Positions 37,601 to 54,180 of a DNA stretch of 64,000 nt are shown piece by piece; the first letter of the stretch is position 1, and each line of letters begins with the position of its first letter. The stretch is from contig NC_019943.1 of assembly GCF_000327485.1 (NCBI RefSeq), positions 682,001 through 746,000 on the forward strand, written 5' to 3'. The notes under the pieces were generated by a model, which saw only the letters and a list, made by a program, of their open reading frames with translations, was not told the DNA's origin and searched no databases. This stretch comes from Methanoregula formicica SMSP. Lineage in GTDB: Archaea > Halobacteriota > Methanomicrobia > Methanomicrobiales > Methanospirillaceae. The position numbers and the translations under genes are program-made.

Positions 37601-40081
37601 ATGAATGAAAAAATACAAGATTTCCCTATCAGTATCAGGAAATTATGGATACTATCCCTTCTCGTACTCTTCCTTGCTGCAGCGGTCACTATCCCGCCTG
37701 CAAGAGCGGATGATTCTTCCACTGCGCTCGGTATCTTCCCGGCAAAACACAATGTCGACAACCTTGCCGTAGCTAATCCCCCGGCGCCGACCGGCATGGA
37801 TTATTATTTCAAGTTCAACCAGTCCGGGGGGGGCGGTATCAACGCAATCCATATCTCGTCGACATCGGCGCTCGATTCAACGGGTCGCAACTTCGGGGAT
37901 GTTTCAACGACGACTTCCCAGTCCGGGACGTTCTATATCACGCAGACCGGCGGTCGTGGGTATGATGACAACTTCATCCTCCTGGTTGCTGTGAAAGGTG
38001 ATATCCCCAGCAATTTTGCCATCCATATAAAATCGAGCGGGTATATCTGGGTGCCGAACGGCGTACTGAGTTACCAGCCAACACTCTCTGAGATAACGTA
38101 CCGTTCCGGTGCCGTTGACCAGACGTTTACCCGATCCAACTTTGTATACGGACCGCAGACCTGGAAACCCTGCGGGAACAACCAGCCGGCAGACTACCCC
38201 CTTTATTATGGGCAGGATATGTCCGATACCACGAACCTCTGGAAGCTGATGTTCGTGGATCTCAAGAGCGGGAATCTCGGCCCAAACGGGGATCTTGATC
38301 ATACCTCCCTGAAAGACAACGGGGCGATCAGGGTCGATTACACGATAGAGAACTTGGATACAGTCGTTACGTTCAACGTGTACGCCTGGGCCGATAATGC
38401 ACCAGCGGGGCACGGCATCTCCTGGACTAACGGCGTTACATCCCCGTCTCAGAACAGCAACCCGTCCATGATCAGCGGATATACGGTGCTCGGGCCCCAA
38501 TACGCCAGCCGGGCATCGGAATTCCCGACCTATAGCGGCAGTACCCCATCCTACCGCGGGCCCGAGACCAACTTCACCGCGGCTCCCGTGAGCGGTCCGG
38601 CTCCTCTTACGGTGCATTTTAACGACACCACTGTCCAGACAATTTCCCTCTCGGCATGGGATTTTGGGGACGGGTTTTCTTCGACCGAAAGGAACCCGGT
38701 GCATGTCTACACCAAGGAAGGGACTTATACGGTTGCCCTCACGGATGCCAATAACCAGGGTATTACGACAACAAAAACCCAGACAAACCTTATCATAGTC
38801 ACGGCACCGACGGGTGGATCCGCGGCAAACAGTGGCGGAGCAACCGGCACCGGGAACCAGAACGGCAGCTACACGAACCCTCTCACCGGTGTTTCGTATC
38901 CTGTCAATTTCACTGCCAGCGTTACCTCCGGCGTAGCCCCGCTCTCCGTCCAGTTCTCCGATGTCTCGGGCATTCCCGGGACGATTGCCTGGGCATGGGA
39001 CTTTACCGGTGACGGCAAGCCTGAGAGTACTGTGAAAGATCCCGCCTATGTATTCAAAAGTCCCGGCACGTATTCCGTGAATTTAGTAGTCACTACCAGC
39101 GATGGAGGGAGGTTCTCAGTGAACCGCACCGGTTACATCCACGTCGTCGACAAGGTGTCCCTTGACAGCGATATTGGCTGGATATCGTCGGATAAGGCTG
39201 AGGCCGGGCAGGGCAATCCGGGTACCGGGAAAAGAGAAGCAGCAGCAGTCTCCACCAGCTCGTTTGCCTTCAGCGGTGTCCGGGCCGGGACGAACGGAGG
39301 GAAGCAGGACGTGACGATCGATACCCGGCAGGCGCCCGCCGAAACGTCCGGAAGCGTTGTCAGGCTGAACAGTGCCGGCGGGAGCTGGGAGAATGTTGCC
39401 ATCACATTTGCCGCCCCGCCGGTAAACGATGGGACGACTCTTTCCGGTACGATAAAAAGCGTCCAGGCAGAGACAAAGCCGGTTACGGTCCCGTCAGTAT
39501 CGCTCGGGAACCCCTCGGTCACGATGTCCCTGGGCCTTGCAGGGCTTCCCGATTCGGCGGCATCCATCACGAGCACTGCTGTCTCCGGGTGCGGGCCTGC
39601 CGGGGAGACCGCCTTCCGGGATGCCGTGAAGGCGAACGGCAATGACCTTTCGGCAGTCGCGTACACAGTGGCATACAGCAAGGACGGTATCGCAAATGAG
39701 GAGAACGGCGGGATCATCCGGGATGCCACCATCTCGATGGCGGTCAGCCCAGCCTGGGTCGCTTCACAAGGCGGAACCGGGCAGGTCGTGATCATCCACC
39801 GTGCTGACGATGGCAGGACAACGGTGCTCCCGACGCGGTACCTGGGGACGGACGAACGCGGCAACGAGCTCTTCACGGCCGATTCGCCAACCGGCCTCTC
39901 GACATTTGCCCTTGCGGCCGTTACGTCGGGTACCCCGGCGCCGACACCGGCGGTAAACCAGAGCCCGGGTGCAGCCGGGGGAACCTCGCCGCTGGGGGAG
40001 AAGATCGCCGGGCTCCTCTTCGATGCCATTATCGTGGTCGCCGTTATCGGGGCGGGTCTTGTCATCTGGAGGAAGATGTGA
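37601..40081 (+). CDS. large surface protein with repeat domain, two PKD domains and pre-PGF-like module
   Basis: The 826-residue protein has these parts in order. Signal peptide (residues about 1-36). The recurring beta domain in standard order (about 50-290: GINAIHIS, GTFYITQTGGRGYDD, FVYGPQTWKP, YPLYYGQDM, KLMFVDL). PKD 1 (about 325-400, AWDFGDGFSSTERNPVHVYT) and PKD 2 (about 430-510, AWAWDFTGDGKPE). A C-terminal PGF-pre-PGF-like module (about 545-775, SLGNPSVTMSLG ... AYTVAYSKDGIANEENGG). A C-terminal transmembrane helix with a short basic end. It is predicted to be S-layer associated or anchored, with a function in adhesion or envelope structure. It is a shorter relative of the 2149-residue protein at 47731. 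Confidence 0.9.
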   Translation: MNEKIQDFPISIRKLWILSLLVLFLAAAVTIPPARADDSSTALGIFPAKHNVDNLAVANPPAPTGMDYYFKFNQSGGGGINAIHISSTSALDSTGRNFGDVSTTTSQSGTFYITQTGGRGYDDNFILLVAVKGDIPSNFAIHIKSSGYIWVPNGVLSYQPTLSEITYRSGAVDQTFTRSNFVYGPQTWKPCGNNQPADYPLYYGQDMSDTTNLWKLMFVDLKSGNLGPNGDLDHTSLKDNGAIRVDYTIENLDTVVTFNVYAWADNAPAGHGISWTNGVTSPSQNSNPSMISGYTVLGPQYASRASEFPTYSGSTPSYRGPETNFTAAPVSGPAPLTVHFNDTTVQTISLSAWDFGDGFSSTERNPVHVYTKEGTYTVALTDANNQGITTTKTQTNLIIVTAPTGGSAANSGGATGTGNQNGSYTNPLTGVSYPVNFTASVTSGVAPLSVQFSDVSGIPGTIAWAWDFTGDGKPESTVKDPAYVFKSPGTYSVNLVVTTSDGGRFSVNRTGYIHVVDKVSLDSDIGWISSDKAEAGQGNPGTGKREAAAVSTSSFAFSGVRAGTNGGKQDVTIDTRQAPAETSGSVVRLNSAGGSWENVAITFAAPPVNDGTTLSGTIKSVQAETKPVTVPSVSLGNPSVTMSLGLAGLPDSAASITSTAVSGCGPAGETAFRDAVKANGNDLSAVAYTVAYSKDGIANEENGGIIRDATISMAVSPAWVASQGGTGQVVIIHRADDGRTTVLPTRYLGTDERGNELFTADSPTGLSTFALAAVTSGTPAPTPAVNQSPGAAGGTSPLGEKIAGLLFDAIIVVAVIGAGLVIWRKM

Positions 40082-40188: not shown

Positions 40189-40977
40189 ATGCCTGATGAG
40201 TCCAGCGAGATCCAGACGATAACGGTCCTGCCCGGCAAATCAAAGGACGGGAACCGGGAGTCATTTACCGAGATTACGATCCGGGCAGGCGATCTGGTCT
40301 CGATCGTCGGGCCGACCGGCTCCGGTAAGACCGCGTTCATCAACGACATCGAGGTCTTTGCGAGCGGAGATACCGTGACCGGGAGGACCGTGCTCGTCAA
40401 CGGCGAGGTGCCCCCCGACGAGATGGTGCGGGACCCGGCAAAAAAACCGATCGCGCTCATCACCCAGAACACCAAGTGTCTCGCGGATCTCACGGTCGGC
40501 GAGTTCCTGGAGATGCACGTGAAGGCCCGGAAGATCGCCGATACCACCCGCACGGAAGAGACCATCACGCTTGCCAATCGCTTCACCGGAGAGAAGATCG
40601 ACAGCACGATGCGCATGACCGCGCTCTCGGGGGGGCAGACCCGCTCGCTCCTGATTGCGGATGCCATTGCCGTGAGCAGCGCCCCGATCATCCTGCTTGA
40701 CGAAGTGGAGAGCGGGGGGATCTTCAAGGAGAACGTGATCGATTCCCTCCGGAAAAACAACAAGGCTGTCATCTTCGTCACCCACGACCCCCTCCTCGCG
40801 CTCCTCTCGGACCGGCGTATCGTGATGCGGAACGGTTCGGTGGAGAAGCTCCTCGAACCGGGCGACCGCGAGCAGGCGGTCCTCACCCGGATGACCTGGA
40901 TCGATGGCGCCTTCTCCCGGGTACGGGAGAAGATCCGGGCCGGGGAGATCCTAACCGAGGAGGCTGATACGAATTGA
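40189..40977 (+). CDS. stand-alone soluble ABC-type ATPase
   Basis: The 262-residue protein has every ABC ATPase motif: Walker A VGPTGSGKTAF at about residues 40-50, Q-loop ALITQNT, signature MTALSGGQTRSLLIAD, Walker B PIILLDEVESGG, and the H-loop VIFVTHDP. No membrane segment or permease gene is nearby, so it is not a transporter by context. It is the first gene of a three-gene operon with a HypB-like GTPase and a 4Fe-4S/His-rich protein, whose start overlaps this stop (TTGA). A role in metal-cofactor assembly or enzyme activation is inferred. GAGGAG precedes the ATG. Confidence 0.88.
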   Translation: MPDESSEIQTITVLPGKSKDGNRESFTEITIRAGDLVSIVGPTGSGKTAFINDIEVFASGDTVTGRTVLVNGEVPPDEMVRDPAKKPIALITQNTKCLADLTVGEFLEMHVKARKIADTTRTEETITLANRFTGEKIDSTMRMTALSGGQTRSLLIADAIAVSSAPIILLDEVESGGIFKENVIDSLRKNNKAVIFVTHDPLLALLSDRRIVMRNGSVEKLLEPGDREQAVLTRMTWIDGAFSRVREKIRAGEILTEEADTN

Positions 40978-41681
40978 AGCTCATCATCCTTGCCGGGCCG
41001 CCAAGCGCCGGTAAGACTGCGGTTGTCCGGCAGATCATCCGGCAGCTTGCGGGAGAGCACCTGATCGCATTCTTAAAGATCGATGTTGTCCGTGCTTTCG
41101 AAGACGAGGAGCTGAAAGCGGAATTTAAGATCCCGACGAAGAAGGTCTATTCCGGCGATGTCTGTCCCGACCATACCGGGATCCTCGTGCTCCGCGATGC
41201 GATCTCGTGGGCAGAGGACCTGGGTGCCGGCATCCTCATTGTCGAGAGTGCCGGTCTCTGCCTCCGCTGCACGCCGTACACTACCCAGTCGCTCGGGATC
41301 GCGGTGCTCTCTGCAGTCGGGGGAACGAACAGCCCCCTCAAGATGGCGCCCATGATCGCCCTTGCCGATATCGCGGTCGTGACGAAAGTGGATTTGATCT
41401 CGCAGGCGGAGAAGGAAGTATTTCGGGAGCGGGTGCGGGAGGTTGCCCCCCGTGCCGACATCATCGAGACGAACGCGGTGCACGGGACCGGGCTACGGTT
41501 CCTGATGAAGGCGATCCGGGCGATGCCGGAGATCCTCGACCCGGATGCAATCGTGCTCCGGGGCATGCCCCCCCTTGCCGTGTGCACGATCTGTGCCGGG
41601 AAGAAGGAGATCGGGTGGCAGCAGCACTTCGGGATCTTAAAGACCCTCGATGGCGCCGACGACCTGTACCGGGGAGAGTGA
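40974..41681 (+). CDS. HypB/UreG-like GTPase with Cys metal motifs
   Basis: The 235-residue protein is a G3E/SIMIBI-type P-loop NTPase: GPPSAGKTAVVRQII at about residues 8-22, an ESAGLCLRCTPYT segment equivalent to the ENVGNLVCP metal/switch region of HypB, and a base-recognition VVTKVDLI. The C-x2-C in LCLRC and the C-terminal CTICAGKK offer metal or cluster ligands. HypB and UreG insert nickel into hydrogenase and urease; this one is a divergent relative. The TTG start at 40974 overlaps the upstream stop. It probably drives metal insertion for an unknown target. Confidence 0.85.
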   Translation: MKLIILAGPPSAGKTAVVRQIIRQLAGEHLIAFLKIDVVRAFEDEELKAEFKIPTKKVYSGDVCPDHTGILVLRDAISWAEDLGAGILIVESAGLCLRCTPYTTQSLGIAVLSAVGGTNSPLKMAPMIALADIAVVTKVDLISQAEKEVFRERVREVAPRADIIETNAVHGTGLRFLMKAIRAMPEILDPDAIVLRGMPPLAVCTICAGKKEIGWQQHFGILKTLDGADDLYRGE

Positions 41682-41687
41682 AACGGG

Positions 41688-42548
41688 ATGGCATGGGAAC
41701 CTCCCGGCCGGAACTGCGGGGCCTGCGGGGCCGCAAACTGCAGCGATTTCCTGCTCCTGGCCCGGCAGGGGAAAAAAGATCTTCCGGACTGCCCGTATTA
41801 CGAGCGGCCGGAGAAGCGGGACTCACTGCCGGCTGCCCGACCGGGATCCGGCCGGGACCTGCTGGGATTCGATTACGATTTTGCGATCCACCCGTTCCCG
41901 AACGAGCCTTCGGCCCGCCGGCATATCCAGCTGCTCCGGCCGGACCTTGCCGAGCGGTGGGATCTTCTTCCCGGGGACATCCTGCGGGGACGGCCGGTGG
42001 AGCCAAGTTGTCCCATCCAGCACGTGCTCAGAGTATTCTCGGTCGATCCCGTGACCGGCATCCTCTCCTGCCATACGGTCGGGCCGATGGCAGCCCGTAC
42101 GGATACGAAGGTGTTTGACATACGGGCCTACCACGAGATCGGGTTCGAAGGTATTGCGAGGACCGTCCGGCACGAACCCGTGGTCGGGTTCCGGATGCGG
42201 TTCCTCCCGGCACACTGCATGCGGCAGCTGGTCCACTCGGGCGTTGTGCAGATGGTGCTGAACAAGTCCTGTGGTACCCACGTGCTGGTCGAGGACCTCC
42301 AGATGCACGGCAAGCGGGAGAAGTTAAAAGACATCACGATCCGGCCCGGCGATTCCGTCTCCATCCAGGATGCCTCGGGAGAGTGCAAGACGGTTCTCAT
42401 CGATGGAATCCGTGTCCACACTTCGGAAGGCGGGGTACTGGAGCGATCGTGGCAGGATGAGGACCATGGTCCCGGCGGGCACGTGCCGGGGTCCGGCCGG
42501 GGCCGGTGCCACGGCCATGCTAGGCACGGGCACGATGACGACGACTGA
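41688..42548 (+). CDS. 4Fe-4S protein with His-rich C-terminal tail
   Basis: The 286-residue protein begins with a Fe-S motif NCGACGAANCSDFLLLARQG...DCPYY (C-x2-C-x4-C-x16-C), as in RnfB and the CODH/ACS corrinoid protein. A middle domain follows with SCPIQHVLRVF, LSCHTVGPMAAR and LNKSCGTHVLVED. The last 30 residues are rich in His, Gly and Asp (GRGRCHGHARHGHDDDD), a likely nickel or zinc binding tail. It is the last gene of the operon, 6 bp after the GTPase with a good ribosome site. I do not recognise a named family; a scaffold or metallochaperone is inferred. Confidence 0.85.
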   Translation: MAWEPPGRNCGACGAANCSDFLLLARQGKKDLPDCPYYERPEKRDSLPAARPGSGRDLLGFDYDFAIHPFPNEPSARRHIQLLRPDLAERWDLLPGDILRGRPVEPSCPIQHVLRVFSVDPVTGILSCHTVGPMAARTDTKVFDIRAYHEIGFEGIARTVRHEPVVGFRMRFLPAHCMRQLVHSGVVQMVLNKSCGTHVLVEDLQMHGKREKLKDITIRPGDSVSIQDASGECKTVLIDGIRVHTSEGGVLERSWQDEDHGPGGHVPGSGRGRCHGHARHGHDDDD

Positions 42549-42592: not shown

Positions 42593-42622
42593 ATCAACTA
42601 AAAATTGTTGATTTTCTTTTTA
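42593..42622 (+). terminator. terminator of the three-gene metal-assembly operon
   Basis: An atcaac/gttgat stem (6 bp, 8-nt loop) at 42593-42612 is followed by a T-rich tttctttttaatt. Confidence 0.55.
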
Positions 42623-42671
42623 ATTAAAGTGAAATAATTAACTATTTATACGGCTCCGGCCTATCAGATGG

Positions 42672-43046
42672 ATGATAACGCATTTCCAAAAAAGATCCAT
42701 CGAGCCATACGGCAATCACACACCAGGTGCCCAAGAGATTGAGATGCGTTGTCAACCGAACGGACAAATGAACAGGATAAGCTCACAACAAAGAGTCTCA
42801 TCAACGATCAGGATACGTCTGGAAGCGAGCCGGTCCGTGGTCAGGACCGGTTCCCGACAGGAACCGGTAATCCCTGCATGCGTTCTCGTTCTTATGACAA
42901 ACCATCGCCTTCGACAGATTCCTCCAGACGGGCGAAAACTCCGCTGCAGGGCCTGCAACCGGGAGTACCCGGCAGGAAAAAAGCCCGACACCTTTTGTAT
43001 ATGCCCGGCCTGTTGCCCCATCGTGTATATCGACGATGACGATTAG
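42672..43046 (+). CDS. possible small zinc-ribbon protein
   Basis: The C-terminal part of this frame reads KLRCRACNREYPAGKKPDTF and then CICPACCPIVYIDDDD, a credible zinc-ribbon with five or six cysteines. The N-terminal 70 residues look non-coding. The true start could be ATG 42894 (MTNHRLRQIPPDG), giving about 50 residues, though with no ribosome site. A second open frame shifted by one base covers 42749-43039 and looks more protein-like in its first half, so a frameshift is possible. Confidence 0.4.
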   Translation: MITHFQKRSIEPYGNHTPGAQEIEMRCQPNGQMNRISSQQRVSSTIRIRLEASRSVVRTGSRQEPVIPACVLVLMTNHRLRQIPPDGRKLRCRACNREYPAGKKPDTFCICPACCPIVYIDDDD

Positions 43047-43593: not shown

Positions 43594-43803
43594 TTAGTCT
43601 ACTGCCACCATCACTTCGGAGGCCTTGACAACTGCGTAGACCTTGGAGCCCTCTTTCAGCTTCAGGGACTCTGCCGAGTGGGTGGTGATCGAGGAGACCA
43701 TCTCGTGGCCGCCGCCAATATTGATGACGACTTCCGTACTTACCGGGCCCTTCTTGATGGACTTGACGGTGCCCGCAATCTGGTTTCGTGCACTGATCTT
43801 CAT
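43594..43803 (-). CDS. molbindin (Mop domain protein)
   Basis: The 69-residue protein is a single TOBE/Mop domain (MKISARNQIAGTVKSIKKGP ... KVYAVVKASEVMVAVD), which binds molybdate or tungstate in oligomers and acts as an oxyanion store. Methanogens need Mo or W for formylmethanofuran dehydrogenase. ATG 43803 was chosen: GGTGA lies about 5 nt upstream, inside the alternative start codon region at 43815. Confidence 0.92.
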   Translation of the reverse strand: MKISARNQIAGTVKSIKKGPVSTEVVINIGGGHEMVSSITTHSAESLKLKEGSKVYAVVKASEVMVAVD

Positions 43804-43939
43804 GGTTTTCACCATGACACAATCTACCGTGTTGGTATAAAAGGATAGCTTTGGTTTTCCTTTTACCATGTAGAGTATCTCGGGGGAGGTGCAGGTAAAC
43901 AGTTACATTGAGTGCATTTCCTGTCCGGCACAACAGGTA

Positions 43940-47730: not shown

Positions 47731-50700
47731 ATGATCCCGCGGCTCTTCCGGGTAGCGGCGCTCCTGCTCTGTCTTGTATTCATGATGGTTCCTGCCATGG
47801 CGGATGGCGGGCTTGCCAACAGCCCGTGGCCGAAGTACGGATACGATCTCAACAACACCGGCCGGTCCCCGTTCATCGGTTCGCAGGACGCTACGGTAAA
47901 ATGGATCTATCCAGCACCCGGTAACTTCACGTATAGTAGCCCGGTCATTGGGCCGGATGGTACTATCTATATCCCGAATTATGGCGACAAGAATCTCTAT
48001 GCCATCAACCCTGACGGGTCCGTCAAGTGGACATACTATAGCGGAGGGAATCTTTATTATTCACCTGCAATAGGGTCCGATGGCACGATATACTTCGGGG
48101 ACTACACGAACTATAATTTAACCGCGCTGAACCCAGACGGGACACGGAAATGGAACTTCACAACTGGGGGATCAGTCCAGGCCTCACCGGCAATTGGCCC
48201 CGACGGTACAATTTATGTGCCAGGTTATAGCAGCAACAAGCTCTATGCGCTAAACCCGGACGGGACCGAGAAATGGAACTTCACAACCGGGGGAGGTATG
48301 CGGGGAGGTTCACCGGCAATCGGCCCTGACGGTACGATTTATATCGGAACCTATGCTGACAAGAAACTCTGGGCGGTGAACCCAGACGGGACCGAGAAAT
48401 GGACCTTCACAACCGGGGGATCTGTTTATAACCAGCCAGCAATCGGTGCTGATGGCACGATTTATGTAACGTCATATACGGACAAGAAGCTCTGGGCGGT
48501 GAACCCGGATGGGACCGAGAAATGGAATTTCACGACCGGATATTCGATAGCTGCCGGACCCGCCGTCGGCTCGGATGGGACGATCTATATCGGATCACGT
48601 TATGCGAATGGGAAGTTTTTTGCGCTGAACTCTGATGGAACCCAGAAATGGAACTTTACTACATCTGCAATGATACCGGAAGCCCCCGCAATCGGCGCTG
48701 ATGGCACGATTTATTTCGGGACCTATTCGACAGCTTCAGGTAAAACGAGGAATTTTTATGCGCTGAACCCTGACGCGACCCAGAAATGGATCTTCACACT
48801 TGGGACAGGATTAGCTCAAGATATACAAGGTTCCCCCGCGATCGGGTCGGACGGAACCGTGTACGTCGCAACGAAGGAGGGGAAACTATACGCCTTCAAC
48901 GGCGTGGTCGATTACACCGCAGACCAGACCGCCGGAAAAGAGACGCTTGCCGTCCAGTTCACCGGCACCTCGACCGTGAGCCCCTCGTCCTGGTCCTGGG
49001 ACTTCGGGGACGGCGGCACCTCAACGCTCCAGAGCCCGTCCCACACTTACACATCCCCCGGGTCCTACACGGTCAACCTTTCCATCGTCAACCAGACGTA
49101 CGGGACGACAAACTACCTCCGCAGGACGGGTTATATCAAGGTCTATTCGGCGCCGACAGCCGCCTTTACCACAAACGTCACCGGGGGGTTCTATAACCTG
49201 CCGGTCAGCTTCACCGACCAGTCTACCAATATCCCGACTGCGTGGAACTGGTCCTTTGGCGACGGCAGCTACGCTTCAAGCCAGAATGCAACCCATACGT
49301 ATACGGCACCGGGAAACTTCACGGTCAACCTCACGGTGACCAATCCCGCGGGCAGCAACACCACCAGCAAAAAGGCATATATCGCGGTCTCTGCTCCAAC
49401 CATCCCCGTGGCATCCTTCACCGCCAACCAGACCGGCGGCATCCCCGGCCTGGCCGTCCAGTTCACCGACTCGTCCACGCTGAACCCGACCGCGTGGAAC
49501 TGGTCCTTTGGCGACGCGACGTACAGCGAGCTCCGGAACCCGGTCCACACGTATTCGTCAGCCGGGTCCTACGATGTGAGCCTGAACGCGTCCAACTCAT
49601 ACGGATCCAATATCCTCACGAAGACCGGCTATATCACGATCGATGCCCCGGCCGCGCCCGTGGCAAACCTCACGGTCTCCCACCGCGTCGGCCTTGCGCC
49701 CCTGGCCGTCCAGTTCAACGATACCTCGGCGCACTACCCGACATCGTGGAGCTGGAACTTCGGGGACAGCAGCAGTACGTCGGCGCTGAAGAACCCGTCG
49801 CATACCTACACTTCGGCAGGGAACTACACGGTCACGCTCACGGCAACCAACGCCCAGGGGACCAGCACCAACACCAGCACGTATCCCGTCACGGTCCTTG
49901 CGGCGGAGGCCCCGCTCTCCAACTTCCACTTCATCAACATCTACACAGCCAACGACGAGGGTGTCAGGTTCGATGTACCGAACGGCGTGTTTAACTCCGG
50001 CGGCGCCTATACCTACGTCCCGAACACCTACTGGGTCATGTTCCGGAACGCCGGCGGCGGGACGAACCCGATGCGCATCTCCGCGCTGAGTTCGAGCTGG
50101 AACGCTGCCGATCGCACCACCACGTCCAGCCAGTCCGGCCACTTCTGGATCTCGCAGAGCGGCGGGCAGCAGACCATGCACAACGGCATCCTGATGATCG
50201 CCGTCAACGGCACCATCCCGGACGATTTTAAGGTCCATATCAAATCGACCGGCGAGATATTTGACGTCGGTTCACCGGACATAACGAACATCTGGCAGTT
50301 CGCCGCCCCGGGCGAGACCCAGCGCGTTACCGGGGTTGACCAGACCTTTGACAAGAACGACTTCATCTACGGCACGCAGAGCTGGAAGCCTGACAGCACC
50401 GCGGACCGGCCGATCTTTTACGGTGAGGACCAGACCGACCCGATCAACCAGTTCCATATCATGTTCGTCGACCTCCGGGCCGGCACGTGCCAGAACACGA
50501 GCCTGCCTGACAACGGCCAGCTCCGGGTAGACTACAGCTTCACCAACCTCTCCGGCCGGGCGGTGTTCAATGCCTATGGCTGGTACATGCGGTCCAACCA
50601 CGGCACCGGCGTCATCATGACGAGCAACAATGATGCCTGCGGGTATACCGTGGACCCGGTCACCAGCCCCCCGGCCGCGGATTTTGCGGCAAATTCAACA

Positions 50701-53700
50701 TCTGCACCGGTCGGTTCCGCAGTCCAGTTCACCGACAAGTCGACGAATGCCCCGACAAGCTGGTCCTGGGACTTCGGTGACGGCGGGGTATCCTCTCTCC
50801 AGAATCCCGCGCACACTTACACGACAGCTGGCACCTATACAGTAAAACTCACGGCAACAAACGGTGTAGGGCCGGATACTGTGTCGAAATTGTCCTATAT
50901 TGCGATAACCCAGCCGCTCCCGACCTACAACGACATCTATGTCGCTGTTGCAAATACTGCAGGACCGAAGTACAATTCCTTCAGCAACAACACCTACCAC
51001 ATCCTATTCCAGGGTGCAGGCCAGGGACTGAACGCCCTGCACATCTCCACAGACCCGACAGCGAATTACGGGCAGGTGACCATATCCGAGAACCAGAGCG
51101 GGACGTTCTATGCCACAGATTCCGGCGGAAAGGGATATGAGGACGAGATCATCCTGATGGTCGCGGTCAACGGAACCCTTCCGGACGATTTCCGGATGAC
51201 GATCAATTCCGACGGGTATACTTGGACCCCGAATACCGCAAGCAACACCGCTCCCACCGCCGACAGCATTGTCTACCAGTCCTCGGCACTCAGCCAGACG
51301 TTCTCGGGCAGCGACTTCCGGTACGGCCCCCAGATCTGGAAACCCACGGCGGACGGCCTGAATTATCCCATCTATTCGGGACAGGACATGAGCAACACCG
51401 CAAATACCTTCCAGCTGATGTTCGTTGACCTGAACTCCGGGGTGCTCCATCCGGATTCGAGTCTCATGAATAACGGTGCGGTAAGGATCAACTACTCATT
51501 CCAGAACCTGACCTCCTTTGCGGCATTCAGCGTCTATGGGTACTGCAAGAACTCTAATGCCGGTGCTGATATGATCGGCTGGACCAACGCACTCACTTCC
51601 GATAAGACAATGAGCGGGTACTCGGTTGTCGGGACCGGAGGATCAGTCGGACCGGTAGCAGGTTTCACGGCGAACACAACCGTCGCGGCCATCCTTGCAC
51701 CAATCCAATTCACGGACACGTCGACCGGCGTCCCGACCTCGTGGTCCTGGGACTTTGGCGACAGCAGCACATCAGCTGAACAGAACCCGGTCCATGCCTA
51801 CAGCAGCGCCGGTACCTACACGGTCAAACTGACCGCAACCAACGACAAGGGATCCAACACCGTTACCCGGTCGAATTACATCACAGTGTCGGAATCCGCC
51901 GGAACATCGGTCGCCTCGTTCACCGCATCGGTTGTCAACGGTGTCGCCCCGCTGACCGTGACTTTCACAGACACATCGACCAACACTCCGACCGGCTGGA
52001 CGTGGGACTTCGGCGATGGCGGGGCATCGTCCTACCAGAACCCGACGCACACCTATGGTACAGCCGGGACTTACACAGTGAAACTCTCCGCAACCAACAG
52101 CAAGGGGAGCACTACGCACTCGGCGTCAAGCCTCATCTACGTGGCCAACGAGACCGGAGCCCTGCCCGACTACCACAATGTCTATATCCGGACAGCAAAC
52201 CACGATGGCATACAGTGGGATACTACGAATAACGGGACCTATTACGTACCTTCAGCCTCGAAAGGCAGCGGCCTCGCGTCTCTCCATATCTCAACGGATG
52301 CCTCTGACAACACCGGGAAGATAACAGAAACGGTCAGCCAGGACGGGACGTTCTATGCCATAAGTTCCGATTACCAAGACGACGTCATCCTGCTGGTTGC
52401 CGTTAATGGCACGGTCCCGGATAATTTTGCGGTCAGGATCAGGACGAGCGGATACACGTGGACACCCGTTTCCGGCTCTGCGCCGGTATCCGGCACGTAC
52501 CAGTCCGCGGCTCTCGACCAGACATTTACCAAGAAGGACCTCTTCTACGGCCCGCAGAACTGGAAACCCACGCAGGGCGATGTCGACTACCCGCTCATCC
52601 ATGGTGAGGACATGAACAGTACGGCATACATGTACCAGCTCATGTTCATCGATACCCGGGTCGGGGCCGTCAAGAACACCAGCTTCGTCAATAACGGTGC
52701 GGTGAAGATCCAGTACACCTTCACAAACCTTCCTGACACAGCAAGTTTCGGCGTCTATGGCTGGAAGACCGCCAAGGGCATGGGCTTCACCAATGAGATC
52801 AACAGCAGCGGATATATCGTGGTCTCCCCGTCTATCGGCCTCCCCGCGGTCGCGGACTTCGCCGCCAACCAGACCGAAGGCATCGCGCCATTCAACCCGA
52901 GGTTCAAGGACACCTCGCTCAACACGCCGACCGGCTGGGCATGGGACTTTGACAATGACGGAGTCATCGACAATACCAAACAGATCCCGGACTACACCTA
53001 CACGGCAGCCGGCACCTATTCGGTCAAGCTCACCGCAACCAACAGCAAGGGCTCCGATACAAAGACCCGGTCCGGCTACATCATCGTTACGGCCCCGAAA
53101 GAGACGACGAATGCCTTCACCCTCACCGGCGTCAACGCTACAACAACCGGCTCCGCCCAGACCATCGCGGTCAACGCCAGCAACTCGACCACCAGCAGCA
53201 ATATCATAACCGTGACCAATGTCAGCAGCACCTGGGACCACCTCAATGTCGCTCTTGCTGCCGCTCCGGCAGATGACGGACTGGGCAACCTGACCGGCAC
53301 CGTGCAGAGCGTCGAGGCCGTTGCCGCGAATGTCACCGTCCCGATCGAGTCGCTCGGCAACCCGAACGTCACGCTCTCCCTGACGATGTCACAGGTCCCC
53401 AACAGCACGGCCGCCATCACCAGCACCATCTCGTCCGATCCCGACGCATCGGTCTGGAGCTCGTTCACGCTGGCGGCCTCCTCGCAGAATAAGGAGATCG
53501 TGGCAACCGCGTACACGGTCAACTTCACCAAGACCGATATCGCCAATTCCGGCACCGGCGGCATCATCCAGAGTGCCAACATCACGATGGCGGTCAACCA
53601 CACCTGGGTCGAGGACAACGGCGGCAAATCCCGCATCGTGGTCATGCACCGGTCGGATGCCGGGAAAGTCACGTTCCTGACAACCGAATGGACCGGCCTC

Positions 53701-54180
53701 TGCGCTGCGGACGGCAACGACTACTTTGTTGCGGTCTCACCCGAGGGGCTCTCGACATTCGTCCTGACCGCATACGCACCGGTGACGACAACGACCAGCA
53801 GCTCCTCGTCGTCCTGGTCGTATTATGGCGGGAGCGACAGTTATACTTATTACCCGCCCACCACAGCAATTCCCGCCGTCACGGCAACGGGGACCGCGAC
53901 CGCCACGCCGACCGCAACCCCGGTCCAAACCGAACCCACGAAACCGAAGGTGAGGATAACCCCGTGGCCGACCGGAGAGGTGCAGCCCGCACCGCAGGAG
54001 GAATCCATCATGCCAGCCGTCAGCAACGCAACCGGGCCGGGAATGAAAACACTCTGGAAGAACCCGCTCTTCCTTGCCGCAGAGATCATCGCCGCAATTG
54101 CCATCCTTACCGTGGCAACCGCCGGCTATCTGAAGAAGAGGCGGCGTGACCGCGACCCGCTCCGGTGGGATGAAAAATGA
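47731..54180 (+). CDS. giant modular surface protein: PQQ propeller, PKD and repeat domains
   Basis: The 2149-residue protein has these parts in order. Signal peptide (1-25). Beta-propeller of about eight PQQ/BamB-like repeats (about 30-390, pattern SPAIGPDGTIY...LYALNPDGTEKW). Four PKD domains (about 392-725). Recurring domain copy 1 (about 730-978). PKD 5. Copy 2 (about 1066-1304). PKD 6 and 7 (about 1306-1475). Copy 3 (about 1480-1703). PKD 8 (about 1705-1790). PGF-pre-PGF-like module (about 1792-2013). Ser/Thr linker, a transmembrane helix (about 2110-2130), and a basic tail KKRRRDRDPLRWDEK. It is probably anchored and reaches across the S-layer; adhesion or envelope function is inferred. 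It overlaps the next gene by ATGA. Confidence 0.93.
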   Translation: MIPRLFRVAALLLCLVFMMVPAMADGGLANSPWPKYGYDLNNTGRSPFIGSQDATVKWIYPAPGNFTYSSPVIGPDGTIYIPNYGDKNLYAINPDGSVKWTYYSGGNLYYSPAIGSDGTIYFGDYTNYNLTALNPDGTRKWNFTTGGSVQASPAIGPDGTIYVPGYSSNKLYALNPDGTEKWNFTTGGGMRGGSPAIGPDGTIYIGTYADKKLWAVNPDGTEKWTFTTGGSVYNQPAIGADGTIYVTSYTDKKLWAVNPDGTEKWNFTTGYSIAAGPAVGSDGTIYIGSRYANGKFFALNSDGTQKWNFTTSAMIPEAPAIGADGTIYFGTYSTASGKTRNFYALNPDATQKWIFTLGTGLAQDIQGSPAIGSDGTVYVATKEGKLYAFNGVVDYTADQTAGKETLAVQFTGTSTVSPSSWSWDFGDGGTSTLQSPSHTYTSPGSYTVNLSIVNQTYGTTNYLRRTGYIKVYSAPTAAFTTNVTGGFYNLPVSFTDQSTNIPTAWNWSFGDGSYASSQNATHTYTAPGNFTVNLTVTNPAGSNTTSKKAYIAVSAPTIPVASFTANQTGGIPGLAVQFTDSSTLNPTAWNWSFGDATYSELRNPVHTYSSAGSYDVSLNASNSYGSNILTKTGYITIDAPAAPVANLTVSHRVGLAPLAVQFNDTSAHYPTSWSWNFGDSSSTSALKNPSHTYTSAGNYTVTLTATNAQGTSTNTSTYPVTVLAAEAPLSNFHFINIYTANDEGVRFDVPNGVFNSGGAYTYVPNTYWVMFRNAGGGTNPMRISALSSSWNAADRTTTSSQSGHFWISQSGGQQTMHNGILMIAVNGTIPDDFKVHIKSTGEIFDVGSPDITNIWQFAAPGETQRVTGVDQTFDKNDFIYGTQSWKPDSTADRPIFYGEDQTDPINQFHIMFVDLRAGTCQNTSLPDNGQLRVDYSFTNLSGRAVFNAYGWYMRSNHGTGVIMTSNNDACGYTVDPVTSPPAADFAANSTSAPVGSAVQFTDKSTNAPTSWSWDFGDGGVSSLQNPAHTYTTAGTYTVKLTATNGVGPDTVSKLSYIAITQPLPTYNDIYVAVANTAGPKYNSFSNNTYHILFQGAGQGLNALHISTDPTANYGQVTISENQSGTFYATDSGGKGYEDEIILMVAVNGTLPDDFRMTINSDGYTWTPNTASNTAPTADSIVYQSSALSQTFSGSDFRYGPQIWKPTADGLNYPIYSGQDMSNTANTFQLMFVDLNSGVLHPDSSLMNNGAVRINYSFQNLTSFAAFSVYGYCKNSNAGADMIGWTNALTSDKTMSGYSVVGTGGSVGPVAGFTANTTVAAILAPIQFTDTSTGVPTSWSWDFGDSSTSAEQNPVHAYSSAGTYTVKLTATNDKGSNTVTRSNYITVSESAGTSVASFTASVVNGVAPLTVTFTDTSTNTPTGWTWDFGDGGASSYQNPTHTYGTAGTYTVKLSATNSKGSTTHSASSLIYVANETGALPDYHNVYIRTANHDGIQWDTTNNGTYYVPSASKGSGLASLHISTDASDNTGKITETVSQDGTFYAISSDYQDDVILLVAVNGTVPDNFAVRIRTSGYTWTPVSGSAPVSGTYQSAALDQTFTKKDLFYGPQNWKPTQGDVDYPLIHGEDMNSTAYMYQLMFIDTRVGAVKNTSFVNNGAVKIQYTFTNLPDTASFGVYGWKTAKGMGFTNEINSSGYIVVSPSIGLPAVADFAANQTEGIAPFNPRFKDTSLNTPTGWAWDFDNDGVIDNTKQIPDYTYTAAGTYSVKLTATNSKGSDTKTRSGYIIVTAPKETTNAFTLTGVNATTTGSAQTIAVNASNSTTSSNIITVTNVSSTWDHLNVALAAAPADDGLGNLTGTVQSVEAVAANVTVPIESLGNPNVTLSLTMSQVPNSTAAITSTISSDPDASVWSSFTLAASSQNKEIVATAYTVNFTKTDIANSGTGGIIQSANITMAVNHTWVEDNGGKSRIVVMHRSDAGKVTFLTTEWTGLCAADGNDYFVAVSPEGLSTFVLTAYAPVTTTTSSSSSSWSYYGGSDSYTYYPPTTAIPAVTATGTATATPTATPVQTEPTKPKVRITPWPTGEVQPAPQEESIMPAVSNATGPGMKTLWKNPLFLAAEIIAAIAILTVATAGYLKKRRRDRDPLRWDEK

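What the first reader, a model, noticed from the sequence alone, without database searches (positions are those of the whole stretch)
40189..42548. Three-gene soluble ABC ATPase, HypB-like GTPase and 4Fe-4S/His-tail operon
All three genes overlap or abut and end in a good terminator, so they act together. The ABC ATPase has all motifs but no permease. The GTPase carries C-x2-C metal motifs next to a HypB-like switch. The third protein has a C-x2-C-x4-C-x16-C cluster motif and a His/Asp-rich tail. Known maturation systems for hydrogenase, urease or CODH do not combine these parts. I infer a metallocentre-assembly or enzyme-activation machine, possibly for a methanogenesis enzyme.
Basis: partly seen in the sequence, partly recalled or inferred. 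Interest (0 to 1): 0.8.

Follow-up and report, generated by a model that had tools for sequence, protein, structure and literature searches.

The report
Sulfur-metabolism ATPase–GTPase–iron-sulfur gene trio
These three neighbouring genes are an odd, still intact copy of an uncharacterised protein trio that other methanogens keep beside their coenzyme M genes and many anaerobic bacteria keep beside sulfur amino-acid genes, which points to a role in handling sulfur for thiol and sulfonate synthesis.

Summary
The three genes are real, abut or overlap, and carry the stated motifs. They are an ancient module: all three sat together in 77 of 80 GTPase hits from across archaea and bacteria. In Methanomicrobiales the usual form precedes MMP16, cysteate synthase and ComDE. 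In 60 genomes its presence matches cysteate synthase and ComDE exactly (34 of 34), but not MMP16 (9 lack it). A distant form lies between cysteate synthase and ComD. Bacterial forms add a cysteine desulfurase and an Rrf2 regulator, sometimes methionine genes. The CoM link is already published with role unknown (PMC12068725). New here: the bacterial and sulfonate (ComA) links, a C/H/C/H quartet conserved in every row where the region aligned, and a confidently predicted second domain with no PDB fold match. The window copy is a variant: altered GRPxGxGCP motif, plus a C-terminal piece derived from the ABC partner and a His/Asp tail. It is under purifying selection although its genome lacks cysteate synthase, ComDE and MMP16. 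Best reading: ABC and GTPase mature the Fe-S/β protein, which handles inorganic sulfur for organosulfur synthesis; the substrate is unproven and the window copy may be repurposed.

The parts
40189..40977 (+). Soluble ABC-type ATPase, 262 aa; Walker A GPTGSGKT at 40309-40332; no transmembrane partner in the operon
   Evidence: Pfam ABC_tran 6.2e-14; nearest solved relative is a molybdate/sulfate ABC ATPase, 3d31, 52.8 bits
40974..41681 (+). HypB/UreG-like G3E GTPase, 235 aa, TTG start; Walker A GPPSAGKT 40995-41018; CPDH 41163-41174; C96-x2-C99 41259-41270; C204-x2-C207 41583-41594
   Evidence: PF02492 7.5e-13; hypB model 60.4 bits, cut-off 121.2; Cys/His motifs invariant in 16 rows including distant paralogues
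41688..42548 (+). Fe-S protein of the COG2000 type, 286 aa
   Evidence: (PF04060 7.1e-8), structure models
41715..41792 (+). 4Fe-4S motif C10-x2-C13-x4-C18-x16-C35, like the N-terminal cluster of the corrinoid iron-sulfur protein large subunit
   Evidence: Invariant in 105 aligned proteins; Foldseek 2ycl 0.7 A over 35 columns
41853..42308 (+). All-beta second domain with conserved GRPxGxGC108PxxH112 and C177...H183; in the window clade the motif reads GRPVEPSCP
   Evidence: quartet conserved wherever aligned; pLDDT 95.5, pTM 0.88 for the Heliobacterium homologue; no PDB match at E<=0.001
42309..42449 (+). Window-clade extension, residues 208-254, aligning without gaps to residues 21-67 of the ABC ATPase next door (40249-40389); P-loop degenerate (DASGECKT for GPTGSGKT)
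   Evidence: score 83 against a maximum of 45 in 1000 shuffles, above all shuffles in each of the five genomes; dN/dS 0.04-0.17
42450..42545 (+). Gly/His/Asp-rich tail ending HDDDD or EDDD, window clade only
   Evidence: disordered in the model
42593..42627 (+). A+T-rich hairpin ATCAAC-loop-GTTGAT followed by T's, a possible terminator
   Evidence: Sequence; not reported by the consensus scan

Best explanation
The trio is a dedicated metalloprotein and its two maturation motors, serving inorganic sulfur supply for organosulfur synthesis. The third protein is the working part: a low-potential-type 4Fe-4S domain joined to a beta domain that probably binds a second metal or sulfur species through C108, H112, C177 and H183. 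The HypB/UreG-like GTPase loads or gates that metal. The permease-less ABC ATPase drives a conformational or reductive step, as the A2 component does for MCR. In methanogens the product feeds the CoM branch at or near the sulfite-dependent cysteate synthase step; in other bacteria the sulfur comes from a cysteine desulfurase and serves methionine/cysteine synthesis. The window copy is an old paralogue that outlived the loss of CoM synthesis in its genome and has probably changed substrate. Shown: gene unit, conservation, co-distribution, motifs, predicted fold, purifying selection. Inferred: maturation roles, second metal site, sulfur chemistry.
For: Gene unit in 77/80 loci over many phyla. 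Canonical form equals the cysteate synthase and ComDE set, 34/34, and none of the 23 genomes without any trio has them. In 9 of 11 loci read of a subfamily only about 42% identical, cysteate synthase lies beside the ABC gene, with intact operons reading CS-ABC-GTPase-FeS-ComD-ComE. ComA in 10 of 12 clostridial trio genomes, and in 7 of 7 trio genomes against 2 of 76 others in one class; ComA or ComA-ComB directly upstream in L125 and L124. Cysteine desulfurase in 19 and Rrf2 in 16 of 45 bacterial loci; MetX, MetW, MetY, NlpA lipoprotein, NifU, ThiF and TauE nearby in single cases. The ABC-GTPase pair also occurs with other third proteins (DUF364/DUF4213, or an SBP_bac_6/DUF1858-like protein), which makes it look like a reusable motor with exchangeable clients. 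Fe-S and C/H/C/H residues invariant. Soluble ABC ATPase precedent: PMC12176620.
Against: No biochemical evidence. The window genome (one contig, 99.97% complete) has the trio but no cysteate synthase, ComDE or MMP16 above cut-off, as do G030 and G031, so here it cannot serve that pathway. Genomes within a clade are not independent. Bacterial forms sit with a sulfane-sulfur source, not a sulfite user, so one chemistry for all contexts is a guess. The metal of the C/H/C/H site is unknown and I could not measure distances in the model.
Confidence: 0.5

Rival explanations
1. The trio matures or supplies sulfur to MMP16 (ComF), the Fe-S coenzyme M synthase that makes the final thiol.
For: MMP16 is the next gene downstream in many Methanomicrobiales operons and carries a ferredoxin domain. 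Canonical trio and MMP16 are associated (25 of 34 against 1 of 26).
Against: Nine genomes keep trio, cysteate synthase and ComDE without MMP16. None of 21 bacterial trio genomes has MMP16 above cut-off. In several Methanosarcinaceae-like loci MMP16 is on the other strand while the trio lies between cysteate synthase and ComD.
Confidence: 0.17
2. The trio provides sulfite itself, or an activated form, for cysteate synthase and ComA: an answer to the open question of the sulfite source in CoM synthesis.
For: It tracks cysteate synthase in methanogens and ComA in Clostridia; both enzymes consume sulfite. It tracks these better than MMP16. TauE/SafE-family genes lie just upstream in L133 and L148. 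The sulfite source is described as unclear in PMC6286981.
Against: Making sulfite from sulfide is a six-electron oxidation with no obvious need for ATP and GTP. Bacterial copies sit with cysteine desulfurase and sulfide-using enzymes. No known sulfite-forming cofactor was recognised.
Confidence: 0.15
3. It is a metallocentre maturation system for a hydrogenase, MCR, CODH or other energy enzyme.
For: GTPase is of the HypB/UreG group; Fe-S domain is like that of the corrinoid iron-sulfur protein; HypA lies near one bacterial copy, L150.
Against: Absent from many methanogens, including 21 of 60 relatives for which no ABC gene was found at E<=1e-20. No such enzyme recurs beside it; sulfur genes do.
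Confidence: 0.08
4. The window copy is a decaying relic of a lost CoM operon.
For: CoM genes are gone from G000, G030 and G031; G039 shows such decay with broken trio and ComDE fragments.
Against: All reading frames open, motifs intact, dN/dS 0.06-0.22. The form is a separate old clade (99% support) with shared added domain and tail, and coexists with the canonical form in G021 and G024.
Confidence: 0.04

Closest known systems
CoM-operon ATPase, Ni-binding GTPase and COG2000 Fe-S protein noted by Chadwick et al. 2025 (PMC12068725, Fig. 2 legend)
   Same: Same three protein types; canonical homologues sit with cysteate synthase, ComDE and MMP16.
   Different: Role stated as unknown there. The window copy stands alone in a genome without those genes and has an altered motif, an added ABC-like piece and a His/Asp tail.
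HypB / UreG nickel GTPases
   Same: Same G3E nucleotide-binding domain; Cys/His motifs in comparable places.
   Different: Below half of the HypB model cut-off; extra C96-x2-C99 and C-terminal C204-x2-C207 pairs; partners are not HypA or urease/hydrogenase subunits.
SUF / ISC / NIF iron-sulfur assembly
   Same: Soluble ABC ATPase, cysteine desulfurase and Rrf2-type regulator in the bacterial operons.
   Different: No SufB/SufD-like protein; a G3E GTPase and a COG2000 protein instead; the ABC ATPase is nearest to a molybdate/sulfate transporter ATPase in the PDB.
MCR activation component A2
   Same: ABC ATPase without permease acting on an Fe-S assisted system (PMC12176620).
   Different: A2 has two ABC domains in one chain and different partners.
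Corrinoid iron-sulfur protein large subunit
   Same: The N-terminal 4Fe-4S domain matches in sequence and fold.
   Different: Only the N-terminal domain matches; the remainder matches no PDB fold.

Membership tests
CoM-linked ATPase/GTPase/COG2000 trio | Three genes side by side in the order ABC, GTPase, Fe-S | tested here: met
CoM-linked ATPase/GTPase/COG2000 trio | Colocated with CoM biosynthesis genes | tested here: not met
   For the window copy: none beside it and no cysteate synthase, ComDE or MMP16 above cut-off in the genome. Met for the canonical homologues.
CoM-linked ATPase/GTPase/COG2000 trio | Third protein belongs to COG2000 | not testable with these tools
   COG models are not available; inferred from PMC12068725 and gene context
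HypB (TIGR00073) | Score over the curated cut-off | tested here: not met
   60.4 bits against 121.2
UreG (TIGR00101) | Score over the curated cut-off | tested here: not met
   27 bits against 204.2
HypB / UreG | Binds nickel | not testable with these tools
   Only conserved Cys/His residues were seen
SUF system | SufB/SufD partner | tested here: not met
   Protein 3 has only PF04060 at E<=1; no such gene was recognised among the recurrent neighbours
ABC transporter | Permease encoded with the ATPase | tested here: not met
   No recurrent permease gene in the conserved neighbourhoods
Corrinoid iron-sulfur protein | N-terminal 4Fe-4S domain | tested here: met
Corrinoid iron-sulfur protein | Corrinoid-binding domain | tested here: not met
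   Only residues 1-60 match by sequence; rest has no fold match

The most novel reading that the evidence does not exclude
The COG2000 protein is a new class of metalloenzyme or carrier with a new fold, matured by its own ABC ATPase and GTPase, that makes or channels the inorganic sulfur species (perhaps sulfite) consumed in coenzyme M and sulfonate synthesis and, with a cysteine desulfurase, in bacterial sulfur amino-acid synthesis. The window clade is a repurposed form in which the Fe-S protein captured part of its ABC partner.
Probability: 0.25. Interest if true: 0.85.

Novelty: new variant of a known kind. Interest (0 to 1): 0.62.

Why it matters
The sulfite source for coenzyme M is described as unclear, and a trio that accompanies the sulfite-using steps is a directly testable candidate. 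The same trio is spread through anaerobic bacteria beside cysteine desulfurase and methionine genes, so solving it would annotate a widespread unknown piece of anaerobic sulfur metabolism. The second domain appears to be an undescribed fold with a strictly conserved Cys/His quartet. The window form offers a natural case of the module uncoupled from coenzyme M synthesis.

Tried and rejected
Hydrogenase, urease or CODH maturation: no such enzyme recurs beside the trio, and it is missing from many methanogens. L-ASST (COG1900a) as client: a sub-threshold MMP16 match of that kind occurs in nearly all 60 relatives, with or without the trio. Assimilatory sulfate reduction as the role of the window form: CysD is over cut-off only in G000 and G022, so it does not follow window-type copies. 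A permease elsewhere in the neighbourhood: none recurs. Plasmid spread: no plasmid match. Fold identification: no PDB match at E<=0.001 for the whole protein or the isolated domain. Paper searches gave no experimental work on the trio, and none of the titles and abstracts listed for Methanoregula formicica with coenzyme M addressed a CoM requirement. ComA was not searched in G000.

Full report
WHAT IS THERE. The window is G000:C1:682001-746000 of a single-contig genome of 2,820,858 bases. It is probably Methanoregula formicica (inference: a CysD-bearing Methanoregula; PMC6286981 names that species as one of three methanogens with CysDN). Three ORFs lie at 40189-40977, 40974-41681 and 41688-42548. 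Pfam gives ABC_tran, CobW/HypB/UreG and FeS PF04060. The stated motifs are present. The terminator is doubtful. The His/Asp tail belongs to a small clade only.

A CONSERVED UNIT. In 60 related genomes (Methanoregula and other genera of its order) the three genes are found at adjoining coordinates in nearly all genomes that have them and whose contigs allow. A scan of 84,980 species genomes with the GTPase alignment, keeping the best 80 loci, found all three in 77. Hosts include Methanosarcina, Methanomassiliicoccales, Clostridia, Omnitrophota, Chloroflexota, Bacteroidota, Acidobacteriota, Pseudomonadota and others. No permease gene recurs. Some phylum labels come from metagenome bins; L112 ('Bacilli') and L108 ('Nanohalarchaeota') carry methanogen-like operons and may be misbinned (inference).

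WHAT IT TRACKS. [quoted passage not shown] This is the coenzyme M pathway. The association is published, with role unknown (PMC12068725). Tabulating the 60 genomes gives an exact match between the canonical trio, cysteate synthase and ComDE (34 genomes each, same set; ComDE counted at E<=1e-60, some just under the curated cut-off), while 9 of these lack MMP16. A phylum-wide search with the Fe-S alignment found it in 137 of 392 genomes and revealed a distant subfamily. In 9 of the 11 loci of that subfamily that I read, cysteate synthase lies directly beside the ABC gene, and the intact operons read CS-ABC-GTPase-FeS-ComD-ComE; two contigs lacked a recognised CS neighbour. In Clostridia, ComA is in 10 of 12 trio genomes. 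In the class of Heliobacterium, 7 genomes have the trio and 9 have ComA, with all 7 shared (Fisher 9e-9), but these genomes are probably close relatives, so this is not independent evidence. In 45 bacterial loci, 19 have a cysteine desulfurase gene inserted and 16 an Rrf2 regulator upstream. MetX-like, MetW, Cys/Met PLP enzyme, NlpA lipoprotein, NifU, Mrp, ThiF and TauE genes occur nearby in one or a few cases each. MMP16 above cut-off was in the four archaeal genomes of 25 tested and in no bacterial one.

THE THIRD PROTEIN. Across 105 archaeal and bacterial rows, C10, C13, C18, C35, C108, H112, C177 and H183 are invariant. They persist in the distant subfamily: the quartet in all 17 added rows, the cluster cysteines in the 16 that reach that region. 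AlphaFold2 gives pLDDT 81.8 for the whole window protein and 95.5 (pTM 0.88) for the isolated second domain of the Heliobacterium homologue. Foldseek finds only the 4Fe-4S part in the PDB (corrinoid iron-sulfur protein, 0.7 A over 35 columns) and nothing at E<=0.001 for the beta domain. I could not read coordinates, so closeness of the four residues is not shown.

THE WINDOW VARIANT. Five genomes (G000, G031, G030, G021, G024) hold a form that is a single clade in the GTPase tree with 99% SH-aLRT support, apart from the canonical Methanoregula copies; G021 and G024 have both. Its Fe-S protein reads GRPVEPSCP or a close variant where others read GRPxGxGCP. It ends in about 47 residues that align without gaps to the start of the neighbouring ABC ATPase (above all of 1000 shuffles in each of five genomes), then a Gly/His/Asp tail. 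The P-loop lysine is not kept in all five. G000, G030 and G031 have no cysteate synthase, ComDE or MMP16 above cut-off, yet dN/dS is 0.06-0.22 over the ABC, GTPase and Fe-S core and 0.04-0.17 over the extension. So the copy is in use for something other than the known CoM route.

MECHANISM. My reading is that the ABC and GTPase proteins are motors that mature the Fe-S/beta protein, because the ABC-GTPase pair also occurs with other third proteins, DUF364/DUF4213 (heavy-metal chelation family) or an SBP_bac_6 protein with a weak DUF1858 match. A permease-less ABC ATPase in such a role has a precedent in component A2 of MCR activation (PMC12176620). The shared context is inorganic sulfur entering organic molecules. 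Cysteate synthase and ComA both use sulfite (established knowledge; PMC12713407 for cysteate synthase), and the sulfite source is called unclear in PMC6286981. This makes a sulfite-linked role attractive but unproven, and the bacterial cysteine desulfurase context does not obviously fit it.

LIMITS. The 80 loci were the best-scoring hits, not a random sample. Genomes within a family are not independent. Gene calls in the neighbourhood scripts were simple ORF picks, so counts of neighbours are minimum values. ComA was not searched in G000. All functional statements are inference.

Noticed in passing
window 43594-43869 (-): Stand-alone TOBE-domain (molybdate-binding type) protein near the trio; homologues lie near the window-type trio in L050 (90%) and L047 (77%) but were not found in L049 or in four canonical loci.
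   Followed up: partly
window 42672-43046 (+): Small ORF just downstream with C-x2-C-like pairs and a terminal IDDDD, recalling the DDDD end of the Fe-S protein; partly matched in L075 and L047.
   Followed up: no
L077, L078, L079, L080, L081: Distant ABC-GTPase pairs (about 40% identical) without the Fe-S protein, beside DUF364/DUF4213 or SBP_bac_6/DUF1858-like proteins.
   Followed up: partly
L082 (G039:C1:613878-615228): Decayed trio fragments beside a ComDE fragment, with no cysteate synthase or MMP16 in that genome above cut-off: a CoM operon being lost.
   Followed up: partly
L112, L108: Contigs labelled Bacilli and Nanohalarchaeota carry methanogen-like CoM operons; probably misbinned.
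   Followed up: no
G000:C1:419139-420014: CysD of sulfate activation, over cut-off in only two of 60 relatives.
   Followed up: no
L126:2446-5052: Mrp-like, NifU-like, DUF364 and hexapeptide-like genes directly upstream of the trio in a Bacillota bin.
   Followed up: no
window 37601-40081 and 47731-54180: Large PKD-type or similar surface proteins flank the trio; relatives of the first flank it in L047, L049, L050 and L075 too.
   Followed up: partly
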